Positions 2,949-53,680 of a stretch of 64,000 bases of DNA are shown here, one piece after another. Both the position numbers and the translations under genes were made by a program. This DNA comes from Brucella grignonensis. GTDB taxonomy: Bacteria > Pseudomonadota > Alphaproteobacteria > Rhizobiales > Rhizobiaceae. A model generated the notes under the pieces. It had not been told where the DNA came from and ran no database searches. It was given only the letters and a program-made list of their open reading frames with translations. The first letter of the stretch is position 1, and each line of letters opens with the position of its first letter. Location of the stretch: assembly GCF_002252505.1 (NCBI RefSeq), contig NZ_NNRL01000163.1, positions 377,981 to 441,980 of the forward strand, given 5' to 3'.

Positions 2949-3117
2949 GAGCATAATTTTAAAGTGTTAGAGCGACCTTTGTGCGCCCAATAGGACGCCC
3001 GGGCTCTAGAATGTGAACGCATCCCGAAAAGTGTGAAACGGTTTTCGGGATGCGCGTTAAGACAAACATTGAGACGCGCCGATCTGATAAAATCAGATCG
3101 AAACGTGCTCTAATGAG
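2949..3117. repeat. Composite dispersed repeat (modules B, A and C)
   Basis: Three modules in a row. Module B (about 2955-3008) contains the string TGCGCCCAATAGGACGC. Module A (about 3017-3058) is a hairpin of ATCCCGAAAA / TTTTCGGGAT. Module C (about 3085-3116) is an imperfect inverted repeat around GATCTGATAAAATCAGATC. The same modules recur singly or together through the window. They are non-coding and sit between grpE and its terminator. Confidence 0.85.
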
Positions 3118-5936: not shown

Positions 5937-5983
5937 CGCATTATCCGACGCAAAACTGCTTCGCACTTTTGCTGGAAATGCTA
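5937..5983. repeat. Dispersed palindromic repeat, module A (reverse orientation)
   Basis: 47-bp hairpin unit starting CGCATTATCCGACGCAAAAC and ending AAATGCTAT. The same unit is at 15047-15093, and a diverged one is in the TPP riboswitch at 46045-46091. Confidence 0.85.
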
Positions 5984-6424: not shown

Positions 6425-6470
6425 GCATGATCCCGAAAAGTGGATACCGGTTTTCGGATAAGATCATGCG
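6425..6470. repeat. Dispersed palindromic repeat, module A
   Basis: Hairpin GCATGATCCCGAAAAG ... TTTTCGGATAAGATCATGC between the VOC gene and rdgB. It ends 18 nt before the rdgB start and so lies in its leader. Confidence 0.85.
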
Positions 6471-9654: not shown

Positions 9655-9666
9655 CCACGCATCGAC

Positions 9667-9690
9667 CCAAAAATCGAAATCGATTTTTGG
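9667..9690. terminator. Hairpin after yraN
   Basis: Perfect 11-bp arms CCAAAAATCGA (9667-9677) and TCGATTTTTGG (9680-9690) with a 2-nt loop, nested in an outer pair GCATCGA (9659-9665) / TCGATGC (9696-9702). Probably the terminator of the rdgB-hemW-rsmI-yraN operon, or another repeat type. Confidence 0.5.
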
Positions 9691-9715
9691 AAAGCTCGAT
9701 GCACATTTTTAGTGT

Positions 9716-9759
9716 TTGAGCGTCCTTTGTGCGCCCAATAGGACGCACGGCGCTCAAAT
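9716..9759. repeat. Dispersed repeat, module B
   Basis: TTTGAGCGTCCTTTGTGCGCC through AGGACGCACGGCGCTCAAAT is an imperfect inverted repeat. The same module as in 2949-3008, 26720-26776 and 30515-30553. Confidence 0.8.
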
Positions 9760-15046: not shown

Positions 15047-15093
15047 CGCATTATCCGACGCAAAACCGCTTCGCACTTTTGCTGGAAATGCTC
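15047..15093. repeat. Dispersed palindromic repeat, module A (reverse orientation)
   Basis: 47-bp unit CGCATTATCCGACGCAAAAC ... GGAAATGCTC, immediately after the Dabb stop and before the kinase gene. It is the closest match I can align to the riboswitch P3a arm at 46045-46091 (34 of 47 positions identical, counted by eye). Confidence 0.85.
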
Positions 15094-16744: not shown

Positions 16745-16845
16745 TAGAGCGCCGATCTGATTGGATCAGATCGGCGCTCTAAATATTTGTTTTAACGCGC
16801 ATCTTTGTCCGAAAACCGTTTCACACTTTTCGGGATACGCTCTAA
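16745..16845. repeat. Composite dispersed repeat (modules C and A)
   Basis: Module C 16746-16782 is a near-perfect palindrome: AGAGCGCCGATCTGATTGG is mirrored by ATCAGATCGGCGCTCT. Module A follows at about 16797-16843 (GCGCATCTTTGTCCGAAAAC ... CACTTTTCGGGATACGC). The right end supplies the stop codon of the BA14K gene. Confidence 0.88.
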
Positions 16846-21445: not shown

Positions 21446-21826
21446 CTTAATTCACTAAATTTAAATTTATGTAGAATAAATATTAGTTTTCTGAAATCTC
21501 CATAAGAAATTGAAATCATTCTGTATAGATGACCCAAGAATCATGTGTTATGTAATACAGGTGGCTTACGGTTTTGTAGTCGATGATTTGAATTCGCGGA
21601 TTCCGGCGCCATAGAATCCCTTCAGTTTATATGTGTTTGTCTGGCAGAGTTTTAGCGCGTCCCGAAAAGTGTGAAACGGTTTTCGGAAAAGATGCGCATC
21701 AAAACAAAATGTCAGAGTGCGATCTGATTCAATCGGATCGAAATGCGCTCTGATGCCGGAGTGTGCCTGCTTGCAGCGTTTTCAGAGTAAATATTGCTTC
21801 ATAAGGAAAATGTTGGGATTTATGCG
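21446..21826. other. Intergenic region upstream of the LuxR gene
   Basis: About 380 bp, AT-rich in its first 150 bp, with a composite repeat at 21654-21753. I see no lux-box-like palindrome and no open frame worth calling. Confidence 0.5.
21654..21753. repeat. Composite dispersed repeat (modules A and C)
   Basis: Module A at 21654-21701 (GCGTCCCGAAAAGTGTG ... GGTTTTCGGAAAAGATGCGC) and module C at 21715-21753 (GAGTGCGATCTGATTC ... AATCGGATCGAAATGCGCTC). Same order as at 2949-3117. Confidence 0.88.
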
Positions 21827-22534: not shown

Positions 22535-22912
22535 CAGTGCTTAATCCTTCGGCGGTCTGGCTCGAAGGACAATTTACCCCTTCAAAATTATCTTAATACC
22601 ACAAATTTAGTAGTATTTTCCGCGGTTTGGCCGAAAATTGCCCCTTTCGATCTGACGCAAGTTTGTTCCTGCTTCGGGCTTAAAACAGGCACGTTTTCGC
22701 TTAACCCTCTCGCAATACGCGATAGCATACTTTTCCTTTTGCCCTGTCTTTCACGACAATGCGCTCAACGTGGCTTGCCACATCTGCGCCGGATCAGGGC
22801 TCTTGCCAGTCTCCCGCCAGTACCAAAGCGCATTCCGAAAAGTGTGAAACGGTTTTCGGGCAAGATGCGCGTCAAAGTAGAGTTAGTTAGCCGGTTTCCG
22901 GGAGAAACAGAC
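22535..22912. other. Intergenic region upstream of cysD
   Basis: 378 bp. It contains an imperfect inverted repeat AATACCAC-N7-GTAGTATT at 22595-22617 (7 of 8 pairs) that may be an operator, and a module A repeat at 22827-22876. No gene is seen. Confidence 0.45.
22827..22876. repeat. Dispersed palindromic repeat, module A
   Basis: GCGCATTCCGAAAAGTGTG ... GGTTTTCGGGCAAGATGCGC, about 40 bp upstream of the cysD start, so inside the likely leader. Confidence 0.85.
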
Positions 22913-26665: not shown

Positions 26666-26776
26666 GTAGCATAATTTTACCTCCAACTTGAAACAGTTTA
26701 AGGTGAAATTATGCAGCAAATTTAAAATGTTAGAGAAATCTTAGTGCCTCCAATAAGACGTACGGCACTCTATGTC
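26666..26776. repeat. Dispersed repeat, AT-rich palindrome plus module B
   Basis: GCATAATTTTACCT (26668-26681) is mirrored by AGGTGAAATTATGC with one mismatch. A module B copy follows to about 26776 (TTAGAGAAATCTTAGTGCC ... AATAAGACGTACGGCACTC). A similar AATTATGCAGC edge precedes module B at 30488. Confidence 0.75.
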
Positions 26777-29545: not shown

Positions 29546-29644
29546 GCTTGTCGCGGAAAAGTGGGAACCGGTTTTCTGACAAGATGTGCGAAAAAAAGCA
29601 AAAAGATAGAGCATTTCTAATGATTCAACTTAATCTGGAAATGC
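29546..29644. repeat. Composite dispersed repeat (A- and C-like modules)
   Basis: A-like module CTTGTCGCGGAAAAGTGG ... GGTTTTCTGACAAG, then a C-like inverted repeat GAGCATTTCTAATGATTC ... CTGGAAATGCTC. It ends 34 bp before the glpR start. Confidence 0.8.
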
Positions 29645-30487: not shown

Positions 30488-30553
30488 ATTATGCAGCGAA
30501 TTTAAACCGTTAGAGCGACGTTTCAGTACCCTATAGGAGGTATGTCGTTCCAA
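30488..30553. repeat. Dispersed repeat, module B with AT-rich edge
   Basis: AATTATGCAGCGAATTTAAA followed by a B-type inverted repeat GAGCGACGTTTCAGTACC ... TAGGAGGTATGTCGTTC, between glpR and glpD. Confidence 0.78.
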
Positions 30554-36508: not shown

Positions 36509-36592
36509 AGCATGCCCCCCAAAAGTGGACACCGGCTTTGGGGATAACGACATGCGTAAAAGCAATAGTTAAAGCGCGTCGCGCTTTAACGC
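36508..36592. repeat. Dispersed repeat, module A variant plus hairpin
   Basis: GCATGCCCCCCAAAAGTGG ... GGCTTTGGGGATAACGACATGC, a G/C variant of module A that keeps pairing (CCCCAAAA/CTTTGGGG). Then a perfect hairpin TTAAAGCGC/GCGCTTTAA (36569-36589). Same arrangement at 39915-39994. Confidence 0.8.
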
Positions 36593-36659
36593 TTTGCGTT
36601 GACAGGCAAAGCAGCTAGTTAAATTGTCGGAAATACCGGGGAGAGAGTACATAACGGCC

Positions 36660-37719: not shown

Positions 37720-39579
37720 CTATGAAGGAAGAACGTCTTCCAGTCCCTTGGTCAGTTCCAGCGCCTGCCGTTCGAACATGCGGCGATAGATGCCGCCCGG
37801 CTTACGGATAAGCGCATCATGATCGCCTTCTTCCAAAATCTTGCCCTTGTCGAAGACCAGCAACCGGTCAAGCGCACGAACCGTCGAAAGCCGGTGTGCA
37901 ATGACGAGTGTTGTACGACCGATCATCAGCCGTTCCATGGCCTGCTGGATCAGCACTTCCGATTCTGAATCAAGGCTCGACGTCGCCTCGTCCAGAATAA
38001 GGATTGGTGCATCTGCCAGAAATGCACGGGCAATCGCTACACGCTGACGTTCACCGCCCGAAAGCTTCACGCCGCGTTCGCCAACGAGTGTCGCATAGCC
38101 CTTTGGCAGACGCATGATGAAGTCATGCGCACTGGCAAGCATCGCTGCATGCTCGATCTCGGCCTGAGTTGCGCCGGGGCGAGCATAAGCAATGTTCTCA
38201 GCCAGTGTGCGGTGAAACAGGATCGGTTCCTGCTGCACGATAGCAATCTGCGAACGCAGTGACCCTTGCGTGACTTCGGCAATGTTCTGTCCGTCAATCT
38301 TGATGGCGCCGCCACTGACATCATAAAGACGCTGGATGAGCTTGACGAATGTCGTCTTGCCCGAACCCGAATGACCGACCAGACCAACCCGTTCACCAGC
38401 TTCGATCCTGACCGAGAAGTCGCGATAAAGAGCTGTGTCGTGACTGCCGTAATGGAAGGTGACGTTGTCGAATGTGATCTCACCATTTCCAATCTTGATT
38501 GCACCAGCACCTGGCCTGTCGGCAATGCCATAAGGCTCGGCTTCAATCTGAACCAGTTCTTCCATATCGTTAACCGAACGCTGCAGGTTGCGGATATGCA
38601 TACCCACATCACGCAGGTAGCCCTGCAACATGAAGAAGGCCGTCAGAACGAAGGTGATATCACCGGCCGTTGCCTTGCCCTGGCTCCACAGATAGAGCGC
38701 AAAGGCAATGACCACGCCACGCATCACCAGCAGGTTTACCCCCTGAATGAAGCCGTTCAGCGTGCCGATCAGCCATGTGCGGCGTGTACGACCGCGCCAC
38801 TTGGTGACGACCTTTGCGAGACGTCCATCTTCACGACCTTCCGCACCGAATGCCTTAACAACGGCATTGCACGAAATGGCATCGGCCAAAGCGCCGCCCA
38901 TACGTGTGTCCCAGCTATTGGCGAGCGTTGCTGCAGGCGCAACAAAGCCCAGTGAAATCACGATCGTGCAGACGATGAAAAGCACCGAGCCAATTGCAAC
39001 GAGCAAGCCCATCATTGGCCAGTACCATGAGAGCAGCGCCACTGAGCCAAGCAGCATCAGGATTGATGGCAGCAAGGCAATGAGCAGCGTGTCATTGAGC
39101 AGATCGAGCGCCCACATGCCGCGCGAGACTTTGCGCACGGTTGATCCGGCAAAAGCATTGGCGTGCCAGTCGGTCGAAAATCGCTGTAACTTGCGAAATG
39201 AGCTGGCTGCCATGTCGCTCATGATCTTCAGCGTGAAGTCGGTGATGACATAGAAGGTCAGCTGACGTGTGATCAGCGCCAGTGCACCCAGTGCAAGCAG
39301 GATAATCAGCGCATGAACCGCACCATCCCATGCGCTGTCTTTGCCAAGAGAAAGGGCGTCAACGAGCCGCCCGGAATAAAGCGGTGTGAGAACATCTGCG
39401 GCCGTTGCAAGTAGCATACTGATGATAATCAGCGTCAGCCGCAGAGGCTGACTTCGCCAGTGGCCAAATGTGTAGCCGAGGACATTGCGGAAGGCAGGTC
39501 CCCGGAAATCGATACGAAACCGAGTCATATGAATAATACCAGGCCGCGCGAAGACGGATTCTGGTTCCTTTAAAATCAT
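37720..39579 (-). CDS. ABC exporter, fused permease-ATPase (MsbA-like half transporter)
   Basis: About 619 residues: six membrane spans in the N-terminal ABC_membrane domain and one C-terminal nucleotide-binding domain. The latter has Walker A GHSGSGKTTFVKLI, Q-loop IVQQEPILF, signature VKLSGGERQRVAIARAFL, Walker B ILILDEATSSLD and the H-loop VIAHRLSTV. It works as a homodimer or heterodimer. Substrate unknown (lipid, glycan or drug are the usual classes). The start is uncertain: ATG 39579 is used here, ATG 39528 is the next candidate, and neither has a clear ribosome site. Confidence 0.87.
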   Translation of the reverse strand: MILKEPESVFARPGIIHMTRFRIDFRGPAFRNVLGYTFGHWRSQPLRLTLIIISMLLATAADVLTPLYSGRLVDALSLGKDSAWDGAVHALIILLALGALALITRQLTFYVITDFTLKIMSDMAASSFRKLQRFSTDWHANAFAGSTVRKVSRGMWALDLLNDTLLIALLPSILMLLGSVALLSWYWPMMGLLVAIGSVLFIVCTIVISLGFVAPAATLANSWDTRMGGALADAISCNAVVKAFGAEGREDGRLAKVVTKWRGRTRRTWLIGTLNGFIQGVNLLVMRGVVIAFALYLWSQGKATAGDITFVLTAFFMLQGYLRDVGMHIRNLQRSVNDMEELVQIEAEPYGIADRPGAGAIKIGNGEITFDNVTFHYGSHDTALYRDFSVRIEAGERVGLVGHSGSGKTTFVKLIQRLYDVSGGAIKIDGQNIAEVTQGSLRSQIAIVQQEPILFHRTLAENIAYARPGATQAEIEHAAMLASAHDFIMRLPKGYATLVGERGVKLSGGERQRVAIARAFLADAPILILDEATSSLDSESEVLIQQAMERLMIGRTTLVIAHRLSTVRALDRLLVFDKGKILEEGDHDALIRKPGGIYRRMFERQALELTKGLEDVLPS

Positions 39580-39991
39580 TTTCAGCAAATGTGCGATGCG
39601 GTTATGCGCCGGACGATGCGTGAAAACGAAGACAAAACAAACAGCTGAAAATAGCTGCGGCAAATTTGGAAGTTGTTAGGAATGTGCCCTTTTAGGGAGG
39701 GCGGTCAGGCCTTAGCCTGCAACACGGGCCAAAGACTTAAAGCTTGGAAGCGCCCGCATTAACACCGGGCACCGACGGAAATGGATAAGCACGCATCTCA
39801 TACCTCTTGCCAGTGTTTCAGATGGCTGCACAATAAATGAGCAAATCTATTTGCCAAGTGGCAAAATACGGAAGTTTAATTTCAATCCATTGAGTGTGGC
39901 AAAAATGTCAGGCCACGCATGTCTCCCAAAAGTGGGAACCGGTTTTGGGGTTAAGACATGCGTAAAGCAAAAAAATAAAGCGCTTTACGCT
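39580..39991. other. Intergenic region between ABC exporter and thiX
   Basis: About 410 bp. It contains a perfect palindrome TTTGCCAAGTGGCAAA (39850-39865) that could be an operator, a dispersed repeat and the thi operon terminator. There is no thiZ-like ATPase here. Confidence 0.6.
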
Positions 39992-39994
39992 TTA
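39915..39994. repeat. Dispersed repeat, module A variant plus hairpin
   Basis: GCATGTCTCCCAAAAGTGG ... GGTTTTGGGGTTAAGACATGC, then the hairpin that forms the thi operon terminator. Parallel to the copy at 36508-36592. Confidence 0.8.
39967..39994 (-). terminator. Terminator of the thi operon, overlapping the thiX stop
   Basis: On the minus strand: stem TAAAGCG / CGCTTTA (arms 39988-39994 and 39976-39982), loop TAAAG, followed by TTTTTTTT. The TAA stop of thiX forms the base of the stem. Confidence 0.8.
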
Positions 39995-40762
39995 AAGCTT
40001 TCGAGGCCACGCGGCGAGCTTGCGCGCAAAATGTGAGATCGTTGCATGCAATAGCATGGTGAAGGCCGCCAGCACAAACAGGCTTGCGAACATGAGATCG
40101 ACCTTGGCGCGCCCATTGGCGAGCAGCATCAGATAGCCAAGCCCTTTGGATGCGCCGACCCATTCGCCCACCACGGCACCGATGGGTGCGTAGACGGCTG
40201 CAAGACTTAACCCCGAAGCGAGCGACGGGAACGCTGCCGGGATGCGAATGCGAAACAGAATTTGCATGCGCTTGGCACCGAGATTTTCCGCCGCGTTGAT
40301 GAGAGTTTGATCGGTACGCTGCATTCCATCCAGAAAGGTCGAGACGACCGGAAAGAAGATCATCAGAATGGTGACAGCGATTTTGGATGTAGGGCCGTAG
40401 CCGAGCCAGAGCGTTAAGATGGGCGCAAGCGCAAATATCGGGATCGCCTGACTGAACACCATCACTGGCATGACCAGCCGTTGTGCAAGCGGCGACATCA
40501 TCAGGCAGATGGCAGTCAGTACGCCAATGGCAGAGCCGAGAAATAGCCCGCCCAGCACTTCGCCAAATGTCACAACGGCATTGTCAGCAATCAGCTGCGC
40601 ATTGGTGATAAGCGATTGAACGACATCGAGCGGACCGGGCAGGATGAAGCGCGGCATCTGCCAGATGCTCACCACAGCCTGCCATAGTACCAGCATTGCA
40701 AACGCCGACAGAAAACCGTCGGCGATGCGTTTTTTGCGCGAGTGCGGGATCACGCCCGTCAT
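39992..40762 (-). CDS. thiX: ABC permease for pyrimidine precursor uptake (ThiX)
   Basis: 256-residue inner-membrane permease with about six spans. The EAA loop ENLGAKRMQILFRIRIPAAFPS (about 165-187) contacts the ATPase. Its position after thiY and tenA identifies it as the ThiX partner importing formylaminopyrimidine/HMP-type compounds. The start overlaps the tenA stop in ATGA. Last gene of the operon; the matching ATPase ThiZ is absent. Confidence 0.87.
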   Translation of the reverse strand: MTGVIPHSRKKRIADGFLSAFAMLVLWQAVVSIWQMPRFILPGPLDVVQSLITNAQLIADNAVVTFGEVLGGLFLGSAIGVLTAICLMMSPLAQRLVMPVMVFSQAIPIFALAPILTLWLGYGPTSKIAVTILMIFFPVVSTFLDGMQRTDQTLINAAENLGAKRMQILFRIRIPAAFPSLASGLSLAAVYAPIGAVVGEWVGASKGLGYLMLLANGRAKVDLMFASLFVLAAFTMLLHATISHFARKLAAWPRKL

Positions 40763-44024: not shown

Positions 44025-45013
44025 GCCAGGTTCTCCAGAAGTTCAGGCTGTTGTTCGGCCTCGGTTGCTGCCGCAACCGCCATGCGTGCAACCGCAGGCG
44101 AGAGCAGAAATCCGTGCCGGTAAAGCCCGTTGACATAGATTGTTTGGCCACGCTTGCGCACACGCGGCAGATTGTCGGGGAAGGCGGGGCGGGCATCGAC
44201 GCCCGTTTCCAGAATTTCCGCCTCGCCAAATGCTGGATGCAGCGCATAGGCGGCGCTTAACATTTCCAGCGTTGAGCGAACGCTGATACCGCCCCTCTCA
44301 TCGCTTTCGATCATGGTTGCGCCGATCATGTGGATGCCATCGCCGCGTGGCACGATGTAGAGCGGAATGCGCGGATGCAGCAGTCGCACTGGGCGTGAAA
44401 GACTGATGTCGCGGGAGCGAACCACCAGCATTTCGCCCTTCACGCCGCGCAGATCCTGCAATTGATCGCGTGCTGCCAGACCGCGCGCATCGACGGTGAT
44501 ATCGGTATCGATTTTGACGTCTTTCGCATCTTGACCGAGATGAAAGACGACGCCTTTCTTTTGCAGGTTTTCGGCAAGCTCGATCAGTGTATTGCGTGGG
44601 TTGAGGTGGCCTTCTTCGGCAAAGAAAAGCCCCTGCCGGAAACGGCCTGCGAGGTCTGGTTCCAGCGCACCAATCTGTTCGGAATCGATTGTGTCGAATG
44701 CTTCCGTGCGACGGGCAAAGCGGCGCAATTCAGTCGCATCGCGGGTGTGGGAGATGACGAGGGTGCCCTTGCGGTGGACCGTCGAAACATGCCGCTCCCA
44801 CCAGCCAATCGCCTCTTGTCCCAACCTGACGACGGGTTCTTCCGCACTCTCGCCCTCGCACCATGGGGCGAGCATTCCGCCTGCAAACCACGAGCAACTG
44901 TCGGAACCGATTGCGGCGCTTTTCGCAATCACGGTGACGGCATGTCCCTGATCGCTAAACTCTGCAGCGCAGGCAAGGCCAGCAACGCCTGCGCCAATGA
45001 TGGTCACACGCAT
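44021..45013 (-). CDS. thiO: Glycine oxidase ThiO
   Basis: 330-residue D-amino-acid-oxidase-family flavoprotein oxidising glycine to dehydroglycine for thiazole synthesis under aerobic conditions. The FAD fold is VTIIGAGVAGLACAAEFSDQG at residues 3-23. Later motifs are FAGGMLAPWCEGE and the C-terminal NGLYRHGFLLSPAVARM that holds FAD. The start ATG 45013 overlaps the thiD stop. Confidence 0.92.
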   Translation of the reverse strand: MRVTIIGAGVAGLACAAEFSDQGHAVTVIAKSAAIGSDSCSWFAGGMLAPWCEGESAEEPVVRLGQEAIGWWERHVSTVHRKGTLVISHTRDATELRRFARRTEAFDTIDSEQIGALEPDLAGRFRQGLFFAEEGHLNPRNTLIELAENLQKKGVVFHLGQDAKDVKIDTDITVDARGLAARDQLQDLRGVKGEMLVVRSRDISLSRPVRLLHPRIPLYIVPRGDGIHMIGATMIESDERGGISVRSTLEMLSAAYALHPAFGEAEILETGVDARPAFPDNLPRVRKRGQTIYVNGLYRHGFLLSPAVARMAVAAATEAEQQPELLENLA

Positions 45014-45873
45014 CAGACTGTCTCCCACAAATTATGGAAGTGATGCACAGGACCATGCCCGCTGCCGACTTTAAGCTTGTCTGCGTTCTGGATCGCGCCT
45101 TGCAGATAGGCGTGGGCCTCGCGGAGTGCTTGCTCAAGAGGGAGATACTTACCAAGTCCGGCTGTAATTGCGGAAGATAGCGTACAACCCGTTCCATGCG
45201 TGTTTGCGGTGTAAATGCGGGGTGCTTCAAGCCGCATCGTTGGCTGGTCACTGCGGATCAAAAGGTCCGTACAGATTGCGCCTTCAGCATGTCCCCCTTT
45301 CATCAAGACGGTTTTAGCGCCGAGCTTTAGCAAAGCACGGCCCTGTTCCTCTACATCGTCTTCATTGGTCGCCACAGGCGTGTCGAGAAGGCAGGCAGCT
45401 TCCGGTCTGTTGGGGGTTAAAATGGCTGCAAGCGGGATCAGCTTTTCGCGCAGGATTGAAATAGCATCTTCACTCAACAAGCGATCACCCGATTTGGCGA
45501 TCATCACCGGATCAAGAACGATAGGGCCGGAAAAATGCTCGAGGCTTCGCGCGATTGCCTGAATTGTCTTAGGAACCGAGACCATGCCAATCTTGACCGC
45601 AGCGACATTGAGATCGCTGAAAACCGCATCGATTTGTCCGGCGACAATTTCCGGTGGCACATCATGCACCGCCGTCACAGCACGTGTATTCTGCGCGGTG
45701 ATTGCCGTGATAATGCTTGCGCCATAAACATTAAGGGCCGAAAAGGCTTTCAGGTCGGCCTGAATGCCCGCGCCGCCGCCGCTGTCAGAGCCGGCAATAG
45801 TTACGCATATGGGCACGAATGCCGCACTGCCGTTTGCTGTTGTTCGGGAGAAACTGTTTTTTTGGTCCATCAT
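45013..45873 (-). CDS. thiD: HMP/HMP-phosphate kinase
   Basis: 286-residue ribokinase-fold kinase phosphorylating hydroxymethylpyrimidine twice. Motifs: CVTIAGSDSGGGAGIQADLKAF (about 23-44), VLDPVMIAKSGDRLL, LTPNRPEAACLL and the anion-hole NTHGTGCTLSSAI (about 232). The start is ambiguous between 45885, 45873 and 45870. I use 45873 because GAGAG precedes it, and because the 45885 ATG is buried in a hairpin (45880-45904). First gene of the operon under the TPP riboswitch. Confidence 0.94.
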   Translation of the reverse strand: MMDQKNSFSRTTANGSAAFVPICVTIAGSDSGGGAGIQADLKAFSALNVYGASIITAITAQNTRAVTAVHDVPPEIVAGQIDAVFSDLNVAAVKIGMVSVPKTIQAIARSLEHFSGPIVLDPVMIAKSGDRLLSEDAISILREKLIPLAAILTPNRPEAACLLDTPVATNEDDVEEQGRALLKLGAKTVLMKGGHAEGAICTDLLIRSDQPTMRLEAPRIYTANTHGTGCTLSSAITAGLGKYLPLEQALREAHAYLQGAIQNADKLKVGSGHGPVHHFHNLWETV

Positions 45874-45879
45874 GTCGTC

Positions 45880-45904
45880 TCTCATTCCGAACGGAAAAAT
45901 GAGA
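45880..45904 (-). promoter_or_regulatory. Hairpin at the thiD translation start (possible expression platform)
   Basis: TCTCATT (45880-45886) pairs with AATGAGA (45898-45904), with inner TTCCG/CGGAA. It covers the first in-frame ATG and adjoins the GAGAG ribosome site, so it could be the switching element of the riboswitch. Confidence 0.45.
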
Positions 45905-45969
45905 CGTCATGAACCTGTTTGGAGCCTGAACTCCGATGAGGGAACTCCCTCGGCCGCGACGCGTCAAAC

Positions 45970-46109
45970 TCCGTTCCCTACGCAGGTATTACCCGGATCA
46001 GGTTCAATGGGTTAACGCGATCAGCGTCTCTCAGCCTTTTGTGTCGCAATACCGGACGGAAAACTGCTCAGCACTTTTCCTGATATCGCTTCGAAGGCAC
46101 CCCAACGAA
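45970..46109 (-). promoter_or_regulatory. TPP (THI-box) riboswitch with repeat-derived P3a arm
   Basis: Minus-strand order: P1 TTCGTT (46104-46109); GGGGTGCC (46096-46103); P3 GCCTT/AAGGC (46094-46098 with 46034-46038); a 47-nt P3a insert (46045-46091); CTGAGA (46029-46034); AACCTGATCCGGGTAATACC (45985-46004); GTAGGGAACGGAG, closing P1 at 45970-45975. All conserved THI-box strings are present. It binds thiamin pyrophosphate and represses thiDOSGEY-tenA-thiX. Confidence 0.95.
46045..46091 (-). repeat. Diverged module A repeat forming riboswitch P3a
   Basis: The 47-nt arm aligns without gaps to the repeat at 15047-15093 with about 34 identities. The stem pair GCAAAA/TTTTGC of the repeat is GGAAAA/TTTTCC here, a compensatory change. 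Confidence 0.65.
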
Positions 46110-46122
46110 TTTTGCGTCTTTA

Positions 46123-53630: not shown

Positions 53631-53680
53631 GCGCATCCCGAAAAGTGTGAGTCGGTTTTCGGGATAAGATGCGCGTAAAA
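53631..53680. repeat. Dispersed palindromic repeat, module A
   Basis: AGCGCATCCCGAAAAGTGTG ... GGTTTTCGGGATAAGATGCGCG, directly after the gcd stop. Confidence 0.85.

What the first reader, a model, noticed from the sequence alone, without database searches (positions are those of the whole stretch)
46045..46091. A dispersed palindromic repeat has become the P3a arm of a TPP riboswitch
The THI-box core on the minus strand is complete, but P3 carries an unusual 47-nt extra arm. Read against the repeat at 15047-15093 it aligns without gaps with about 34 of 47 identities, keeps the AAAAGTGC loop flank, and shows a paired change (GC to CG) that keeps the stem. This suggests a mobile palindrome inserted into a tolerant loop of a regulatory RNA and was then kept under structural selection. 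Insertions of REP-like elements into riboswitch variable arms are rarely described.
Basis: partly seen in the sequence, partly recalled or inferred. Interest (0 to 1): 0.78.

Follow-up and report, generated by a model that had tools for sequence, protein, structure and literature searches.

The report
Mobile palindrome captured as riboswitch arm
A short palindromic DNA repeat that is scattered through this bacterium's genome landed long ago in a loop of the RNA switch that senses vitamin B1, and related repeats have landed in loops of vitamin B1 and B12 switches in other bacteria, which shows one way in which RNA switches gain new arms.

Summary
45958-46114(-) is a TPP riboswitch (69.8 bits) ahead of thiD; its P3 hairpin carries an arm that is a copy of a dispersed palindrome. 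A covariance model from 22 dispersed copies, without this or any other riboswitch arm, scores it 37.0 bits (E 2.8e-8, rough). Identity to the 15047 copy is 34/47; 0 of 20,000 structure-keeping shuffles reach that. The same riboswitch has a short P3 in 19 of 35 genus genomes and the arm in 16: an insertion at an orthologous site. It recurs: a related repeat lies in P3a of a second TPP riboswitch (9 of 34 genomes), two loops of a cobalamin riboswitch are hit in other species, and two metagenome-assembled genomes outside the genus carry their own repeat in TPP P3. Corrections: the arm tops P3, not P3a; the GC-to-CG pair is normal for the source subfamily, not a later compensation; pairing is kept, but dispersed copies outside riboswitches are as well or better conserved, so selection for the arm is unproven. 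Most likely a tolerated, self-folding extension. Ten searches of the held papers showed no report of this; BOX between T-boxes and BIMEs as attenuators are related.

The parts
45958..46114 (-). TPP riboswitch aptamer (THI element, RF00059)
   Evidence: cmscan 69.8 bits against gathering score 54.3
46035..46097 (-). extended P3: closing helix CCTT/AAGG plus the inserted arm
   Evidence: alignment A1 of 16 orthologous arms; MFE fold keeps P2, P3 and P3a
46045..46091 (-). inserted palindromic repeat (model match 46045-46089)
   Evidence: R1 37.0 bits, E 2.8e-8, not in training set; 34/47 to the 15047 copy, 0 of 20,000 shuffles
46029..46034 (-). CUGAGA core element
   Evidence: sequence and cmscan alignment
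46013..46028 (-). native P3a hairpin, without insert here
   Evidence: cmscan alignment and MFE fold
45013..45885 (-). thiD, first gene after the riboswitch
   Evidence: TIGR00097 321.6 bits
44021..45028 (-). thiO-like FAD oxidoreductase, next in the operon
   Evidence: Pfam DAO 176.8 bits; the name thiO is recalled from context
15047..15091 (-). dispersed repeat copy, GCAAAA subtype
   Evidence: R1 67.3 bits (in the training set as L101)
5937..5981 (-). dispersed repeat copy, GCAAAA subtype
   Evidence: R1 63.4 bits (training set)
39917..39962 (+). dispersed repeat copy, CCAAAA subtype
   Evidence: R1 59.5 bits (training set)
16796..16840 (-). dispersed repeat copy, CGAAAA subtype
   Evidence: R1 55.0 bits (training set)
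29546..29590 (+). dispersed repeat copy, GGAAAA subtype
   Evidence: R1 51.6 bits (training set)
6425..6470 (+). dispersed repeat copy, CGAAAA subtype
   Evidence: R1 51.5 bits (training set)
22828..22871 (+). dispersed repeat copy
   Evidence: R1 47.5 bits (training set)
36510..36556 (+). dispersed repeat copy
   Evidence: R1 47.5 bits (training set)
53631..53675 (+). dispersed repeat copy
   Evidence: R1 47.5 bits (training set)
21655..21698 (+). dispersed repeat copy
   Evidence: R1 46.8 bits (training set)
3019..3056 (+). dispersed repeat copy, shorter
   Evidence: R1 38.1 bits (training set)
39576..39620 (+). degenerate dispersed repeat copy, not in the training set
   Evidence: R1 23.3 bits, E 2.8e-4

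Best explanation
The arm is a copy of a mobile or formerly mobile palindrome of about 45-55 nt. It entered the P3 loop of the thiD-operon TPP riboswitch in an ancestor of part of the genus and has been inherited since. Because the palindrome folds on its own and enters at the tip of P3, it becomes a self-contained extension of P3 and leaves the aptamer core usable. Insertion of the same repeat superfamily into loops of other TPP and cobalamin riboswitches is recurrent; in every case seen here it lies in a loop, not in the conserved core. Shown by computation: homology to the repeat, orthologous filled and empty sites, recurrence, retained pairing. Inferred: that TPP binding and gene control are little changed, that the arm is close to neutral, and that the repeat moves at all today (no enzyme was identified).
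For: R1 37.0 bits, E 2.8e-8, in the window. All 15 other orthologous arms score 27.2-53.8 bits and all 9 thiB-type inserts 26.2-61.8 bits. Arm in 16 of 35 and short P3 in 19 of 35 genomes at the same riboswitch. A relative's arm as query gives 105 matches in the genus: the 16 arms and 89 other places; of 34 of these that I read out, 29 have the GGAAAA core. Insert in P3a of a second TPP riboswitch in 9 of 34. Cobalamin inserts in L226, L227, L228 (site 2) and L224, L225 (site 1), each above all of 300 plain shuffles (alignments). TPP P3 inserts in two MAGs outside the genus, whose genomes give 18 and 52 R1 matches, the riboswitch copy included. MFE folds keep P2 and P3 in 16 of 16 armed riboswitches.
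Against: The distribution is patchy: at least 7 changes on an rpoB tree, or one gain and 8 losses, so losses or transfers must be invoked. G019 has different flanks around its arm, which leaves a second insertion possible. Some members score low: L227 13.5 bits, L225 16.0 bits, L224 not found by R1. The Rhodobacteraceae cases are weak (19.4 and 17 bits, with 1 and 0 R1 matches at E <= 1e-4 in their genomes). In the four cases outside the genus the MFE fold keeps P2 in only 2. No mobilising enzyme was linked: the one family sought (Y1_Tnp) gave 0 matches in G000. Ligand binding was not tested.
Confidence: 0.88

Rival explanations
1. The arm has become a working part of the switch: it tunes folding speed, stability or decay of the leader, or binds a protein that also binds the dispersed copies, and it is kept for that.
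For: Pairing kept in 97.1% of 314 cells, five cells at two pairs with changes on both sides. Arm stems differ by 0.098 per site and its loops by 0.185, against 0.537 at fourfold sites of thiD (105 pairs of 15 genomes). The GACAC tail after the stem is the same in 15 of 16 arms.
Against: 14 pairs of dispersed copies at shared places outside riboswitches differ by only 0-4 of 47; in the five genome pairs where both were compared the arm differs by 0, 8.8, 8.8, 2.0 and 3.9 of 47 and the dispersed copy by 0, 2, 2, 2 and 2, so the riboswitch arm is not the better kept. 19 of 35 genomes do without the arm.
Confidence: 0.2
2. P3 grew its own long hairpin by slippage and point mutation, and the likeness to the repeat is a by-product of being a palindrome.
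For: Long optional insertions that fold as stem-loops are described for many riboswitches (PMC2258182, passages seen).
Against: 0 of 20,000 structure-keeping shuffles reach 34 of 47. A relative's arm matches a dispersed copy at 89% over 55 nt, E 2.6e-14. The loop AAAAGTG and the one-sided GTCC bulge are shared with dispersed copies.
Confidence: 0.02
3. The arm was inserted independently more than once in the genus at the same P3 loop.
For: Patchy distribution, minimum 7 changes. G019 has other flanks, and its right flank holds ATCA as do the short P3 loops of G003 and G032. Separate hits at TPP P3 do occur outside the genus.
Against: 15 of 16 arms share nearly the same borders, and all 16 can be derived from a GCAATATC/GATATTGC outer stem that none of the 34 dispersed copies read out has (34 of 89).
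Confidence: 0.1

Closest known systems
Optional variable insertions in riboswitch aptamers (Barrick and Breaker 2007, PMC2258182; passages seen)
   Same: Long non-conserved stem-loops at specific tolerant sites that leave the core fold alone; P3a is the optional stem of TPP riboswitches.
   Different: In the passages seen these insertions are given no source; here the source is identified as a dispersed palindrome, with orthologous filled and empty sites.
BOX element between two T-box riboswitches in Streptococcus pneumoniae (PMC3049150; passages seen)
   Same: A dispersed repeat forms a composite leader RNA with riboswitches and is transcribed with them.
   Different: BOX lies between two riboswitches; here the repeat lies inside the aptamer, in a loop.
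Mobile attenuators and BIME-based attenuators (PMC2965389; passages seen)
   Same: Mobile or palindromic repeats proposed to be taken up as parts of 5' regulatory RNAs.
   Different: There the repeat supplies a terminator or attenuator; here it supplies a peripheral arm of a ligand-binding aptamer.
RIME, Sm-repeat and AB/C palindromes of Sinorhizobium; Bru-RS1/2 of Brucella (PMC2573895 passages; titles in reference lists)
   Same: Abundant intergenic palindromes in Rhizobiales; the stretch of the window that holds the arm has blastn matches on Sinorhizobium and Rhizobium plasmids (20 of 41 records listed).
   Different: Their published sequences were not held here, so identity of family was not tested; the two plasmid stretches fetched were not analysed further.

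Membership tests
TPP riboswitch (RF00059) | covariance score above gathering score | tested here: met
   69.8 bits against 54.3
TPP riboswitch (RF00059) | placed before thiamine genes | tested here: met
   thiD TIGR00097 directly downstream
TPP riboswitch (RF00059) | binds TPP and controls expression | not testable with these tools
   no bench data
Dispersed palindrome of this genome (model R1) | sequence and structure match to copies outside this riboswitch | tested here: met
   37.0 bits, E 2.8e-8, arm not in the training set
Dispersed palindrome of this genome (model R1) | many scattered copies | tested here: met
   150 matches, all at E <= 4.5e-8, from the 150 of 3304 candidates that were scored; 55 exact core matches, 0 in the reversed control
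Dispersed palindrome of this genome (model R1) | absent from the orthologous site in relatives | tested here: met
   short P3 in 19 of 35 genomes
REP/REPIN element mobilised by a RAYT transposase | Y1 transposase in the genome | tested here: not met
   0 Y1_Tnp (PF01797) matches in G000, while 5 of 14 control genomes ring; a RAYT elsewhere in the lineage is not excluded
RIME, Bru-RS or AB/C palindromes | published consensus sequence | not testable with these tools
   consensus sequences not in the passages seen; a search of the papers for two words of the repeat listed 11 papers, none about such repeats by title
P3a arm (as named in the finding) | stem between CUGAGA and the 3' strand of P2 | tested here: not met
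   the arm lies before CUGAGA, on P3; P3a is separate at 46013-46028

The most novel reading that the evidence does not exclude
Dispersed palindromes are a general and recurrent source of riboswitch arms, and because the same folded element may sit in many other transcripts of the cell, the captured arm wires the vitamin B1 and B12 switches to whatever protein or nuclease recognises the repeat, giving them a second input.
Probability: 0.12. Interest if true: 0.85.

Novelty: new variant of a known kind. Interest (0 to 1): 0.62.

Why it matters
Riboswitches carry optional arms whose origin is usually unknown. Here the origin can be read off: orthologous filled and empty sites, an identified source repeat, and further events in TPP and cobalamin riboswitches. 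It turns the question of how regulatory RNAs gain peripheral domains into something that can be counted across genomes, and gives natural insertion maps of which loops an aptamer tolerates.

Tried and rejected
A DNA search of the window's own genome with the window arm found only itself at a useful E-value; the next match (E 0.29) is in fact a true copy, L094. The link came through a relative's less diverged arm. The P3a-type pattern over 397 genomes of the order, of which only G000 is from the genus, gave 1 match that by its letters is not the repeat. Seven longer TPP riboswitches of order relatives (L217-L223, 124-178 nt) gave no R1 match. The insert of L229 is not the repeat (276 of 300 shuffles as good). 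Of the 40 genome-wide pattern matches, 25 lacked a downstream ACCTG and were set aside; of the other 15, 9 are the genus arm, 4 are L236, L237, L265 and L267, and 2 (L249, L258) do not show the repeat loop and were not checked further. The whole-leader fold is not clearly more stable than shuffles (z -0.99, 35 of 200 as good), so fold energy was not used as evidence. I considered conservation of the arm as proof of selection and dropped it when dispersed copies proved as well or better conserved; those copies were picked for likeness to one arm, which biases them towards conservation. That the six cobalamin loci L224-L229 are one orthologous riboswitch is judged from the likeness of their aligned sequences, not tested by neighbouring genes. 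Papers: ten searches, of which I saw listings; passages of eight papers; no paper read whole.

Full report
What is there. The minus strand of 45958-46114 is a complete TPP riboswitch (69.8 bits, gathering score 54.3). It lies ahead of thiD (TIGR00097) and a thiO-like gene (Pfam DAO); open frames that look like thiS, thiG and thiE follow (these names are recalled from the sequences, not scanned). In the 19 relatives with a short P3 that hairpin is 10-16 nt long, counting its outer G-C pair; here it is 65 nt by the same count, and holds a stem-loop at 46045-46091. The minimum-energy fold shows this as an extension of P3, with P2, P3 and P3a present.

Is it the repeat? Against the copy at 15047 the gapless identity is 34 of 47, against the copy at 5937 it is 35. 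Of 20,000 shuffles that keep the arm's own stem none reached 34 and the best was 28; plain shuffles reached 25. I built a covariance model from 22 dispersed copies of the window's genome; their places do not overlap the TPP or cobalamin riboswitches listed for that genome, and other riboswitch classes were not checked outside the window. Eleven of the 22 lie in the window, so their scores are by construction. The arm was not in training and scores 37.0 bits, E 2.8e-8; one degenerate copy, also untrained, scores 23.3 bits; the other four matches score 13 bits or less. E-values of this model are rough. The repeat is abundant: 55 exact matches of a strict core in the genome against none for the reversed control, and 150 model matches at E 4.5e-8 or better from the 150 candidates that were scored, out of 3304.

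The right source subfamily. The window arm is diverged and finds no good partner by DNA search. Of 34 of the 89 that I read out, 29 have the GGAAAA core, mostly with outer stem GCAATTYC/GRAATTGC or close variants; none has GCAATATC. One GGAAAA copy lies in the window's own genome (L094).

Filled and empty sites. The same riboswitch, recognised by its shared leader, occurs in all 35 genus genomes searched: with the arm in 16, with a short P3 in 19. In order relatives the TPP matches are mostly 94-128 nt long; the seven longer ones I fetched (124-178 nt) gave no repeat match. I read this as insertion within the genus, not loss of an ancient arm. On an rpoB tree of 34 genomes (G013 gave no rpoB) the arm needs at least 7 changes (12 of 2000 label shuffles need as few), or one gain and 8 losses; on a tree of the DNA after the riboswitch (thiD and the start of thiO) 6 changes, or 9 losses. 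The nearly shared borders and the shared outer stem favour one insertion followed by losses or exchange; G019, whose flanks differ, could be a second event.

It is not alone. A second TPP riboswitch was found in 34 of 35 genomes (not in G028). For L052 the gene behind it is thiB (TIGR01276); the others were assigned by leader sequence. In 9 of the 34 its P3a hairpin, the other variable arm, holds a copy of the GCAAAA subtype (26.2-61.8 bits); this needs 3 changes on the rpoB tree. In what looks like one cobalamin riboswitch two different loops are hit in different species: site 2 in L226, L227 and L228 (a pattern search finds this form in 3 of 35 genomes) and site 1 in L224 and L225. Each insert scores above all of 300 plain shuffles when aligned to the window's repeat copies, whereas a sixth long form, L229, does not (alignments). 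R1 itself scores L226 36.2, L228 31.5, L225 16.0 and L227 13.5 bits and does not find L224. I fetched 12 cobalamin loci from the incomplete list, chosen for unusual length with some ordinary ones, so no total for cobalamin can be given.

Outside the genus. One pattern for a repeat loop inside TPP P3 was run over one genome for each of 84,980 species: 40 matches, 15 with a downstream ACCTG, of which 9 are the genus arm, 2 are Rhodobacteraceae records, 1 is a Xanthobacteraceae record, 1 is a record titled only Pseudomonadota, and 2 do not show the repeat loop. The four non-genus cases pass the TPP gathering score. Flanks and P3a differ between the two, so I take them as separate insertions. The two Rhodobacteraceae arms score only 19.4 and 17 bits, and their genomes give 1 and 0 matches at E 1e-4, so they are suggestive only. 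The pattern asks for exact core words, so other cases will have been missed.

How it most likely works. The palindrome folds on its own, so a loop that accepts it keeps the aptamer intact. In minimum-energy folds P2 and P3 persist in 16 of 16 armed riboswitches and in 17 of 17 short ones analysed (18 of the 19 were given, one of these did not match the search expression). Of 9 thiB-type forms P2 persists in 8 and P3 in 9; of the four outside cases P2 persists in 2 and P3 in 3. The last figures may reflect that the folds lack ligand. I infer, without bench evidence, that TPP control is little changed.

Is it kept by selection? In 15 distinct arms 97.1% of 314 pair cells are standard pairs, against 38-49% when the partner is slid, a control that flatters a structure taken from these sequences. 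Five cells at two pairs show changes on both sides. The covariation score and the percentage paired exceed all 500 shuffles and the number of double-changed cells all but one, but the number of pairs with double changes and the number of pair types do not (114 and 397 of 500 shuffles reach them). Over 105 pairs of 15 genomes the arm stems differ by 0.098 per site, its loops by 0.185, fourfold sites of thiD by 0.537 (G019 dropped because its thiD motif was not found). That is upkeep. But 14 pairs of dispersed copies at shared places outside riboswitches differ by only 0-4 of 47, and in the five genome pairs where both were compared the arm was as different or more so (0, 8.8, 8.8, 2.0, 3.9 of 47 against 0, 2, 2, 2, 2). 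The dispersed copies were found by likeness to one arm, which biases them. So the upkeep may belong to the repeat, or to untranslated DNA in general, not to the riboswitch.

What is known. Long optional insertions in riboswitches, and P3a as an optional stem, are described (PMC2258182, passages). A BOX repeat lies between two T-boxes in the pneumococcus (PMC3049150, passages), and BIMEs and insertion-sequence terminators have been proposed as exapted attenuators (PMC2965389, passages). In the listings of ten searches of the held library and the passages seen I found no report of a dispersed palindrome inside a riboswitch aptamer; most subscription papers are not held. From memory, not from a call: short repeats inside cyanobacterial RNase P RNA genes and Rickettsia palindromes inside genes are related precedents. 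The repeat is REP-like, but I do not file it as a RAYT-mobilised REP, since no Y1 transposase was found in the genome.

Noticed in passing
L265:4867-6885: The ThiC frame behind the Xanthobacteraceae riboswitch holds an in-frame, proline- and glycine-rich stretch of about 36 residues ahead of the radical SAM domain; a 132-nt piece of DNA that holds it folds at -78.8 kcal/mol. It looks like another palindromic repeat, inside the coding region of the same transcript.
   Followed up: partly
L229:201-446: A cobalamin riboswitch of G020 has at site 2 a different 47-nt hairpin that is not the repeat by alignment, though its outer ends resemble those of the inserted repeats; possibly a remnant.
   Followed up: partly
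window 9658-9703: A near-perfect palindrome (GCATCGA..AAAAATCGAAATCGATTTTT..TCGATGC) of similar architecture but different sequence, perhaps another repeat type.
   Followed up: no
window 2958-3002, 9706-9750, 26721-26765, 30501-30545: A second dispersed 45-nt family (D2; the three other copies are 71-89% identical to the reference copy).
   Followed up: no
window 36537-36595 and 39943-40001: Two palindrome copies are followed by a shared second module that ends in an AAAGCG..CGCTTT palindrome (D5), which suggests a mosaic repeat.
   Followed up: no
L217 (G052), L218 and L219 (G057): TPP riboswitches of 159, 178 and 136 nt in other families of the order without a match to this repeat; the source of their extra length is unknown.
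   Followed up: no
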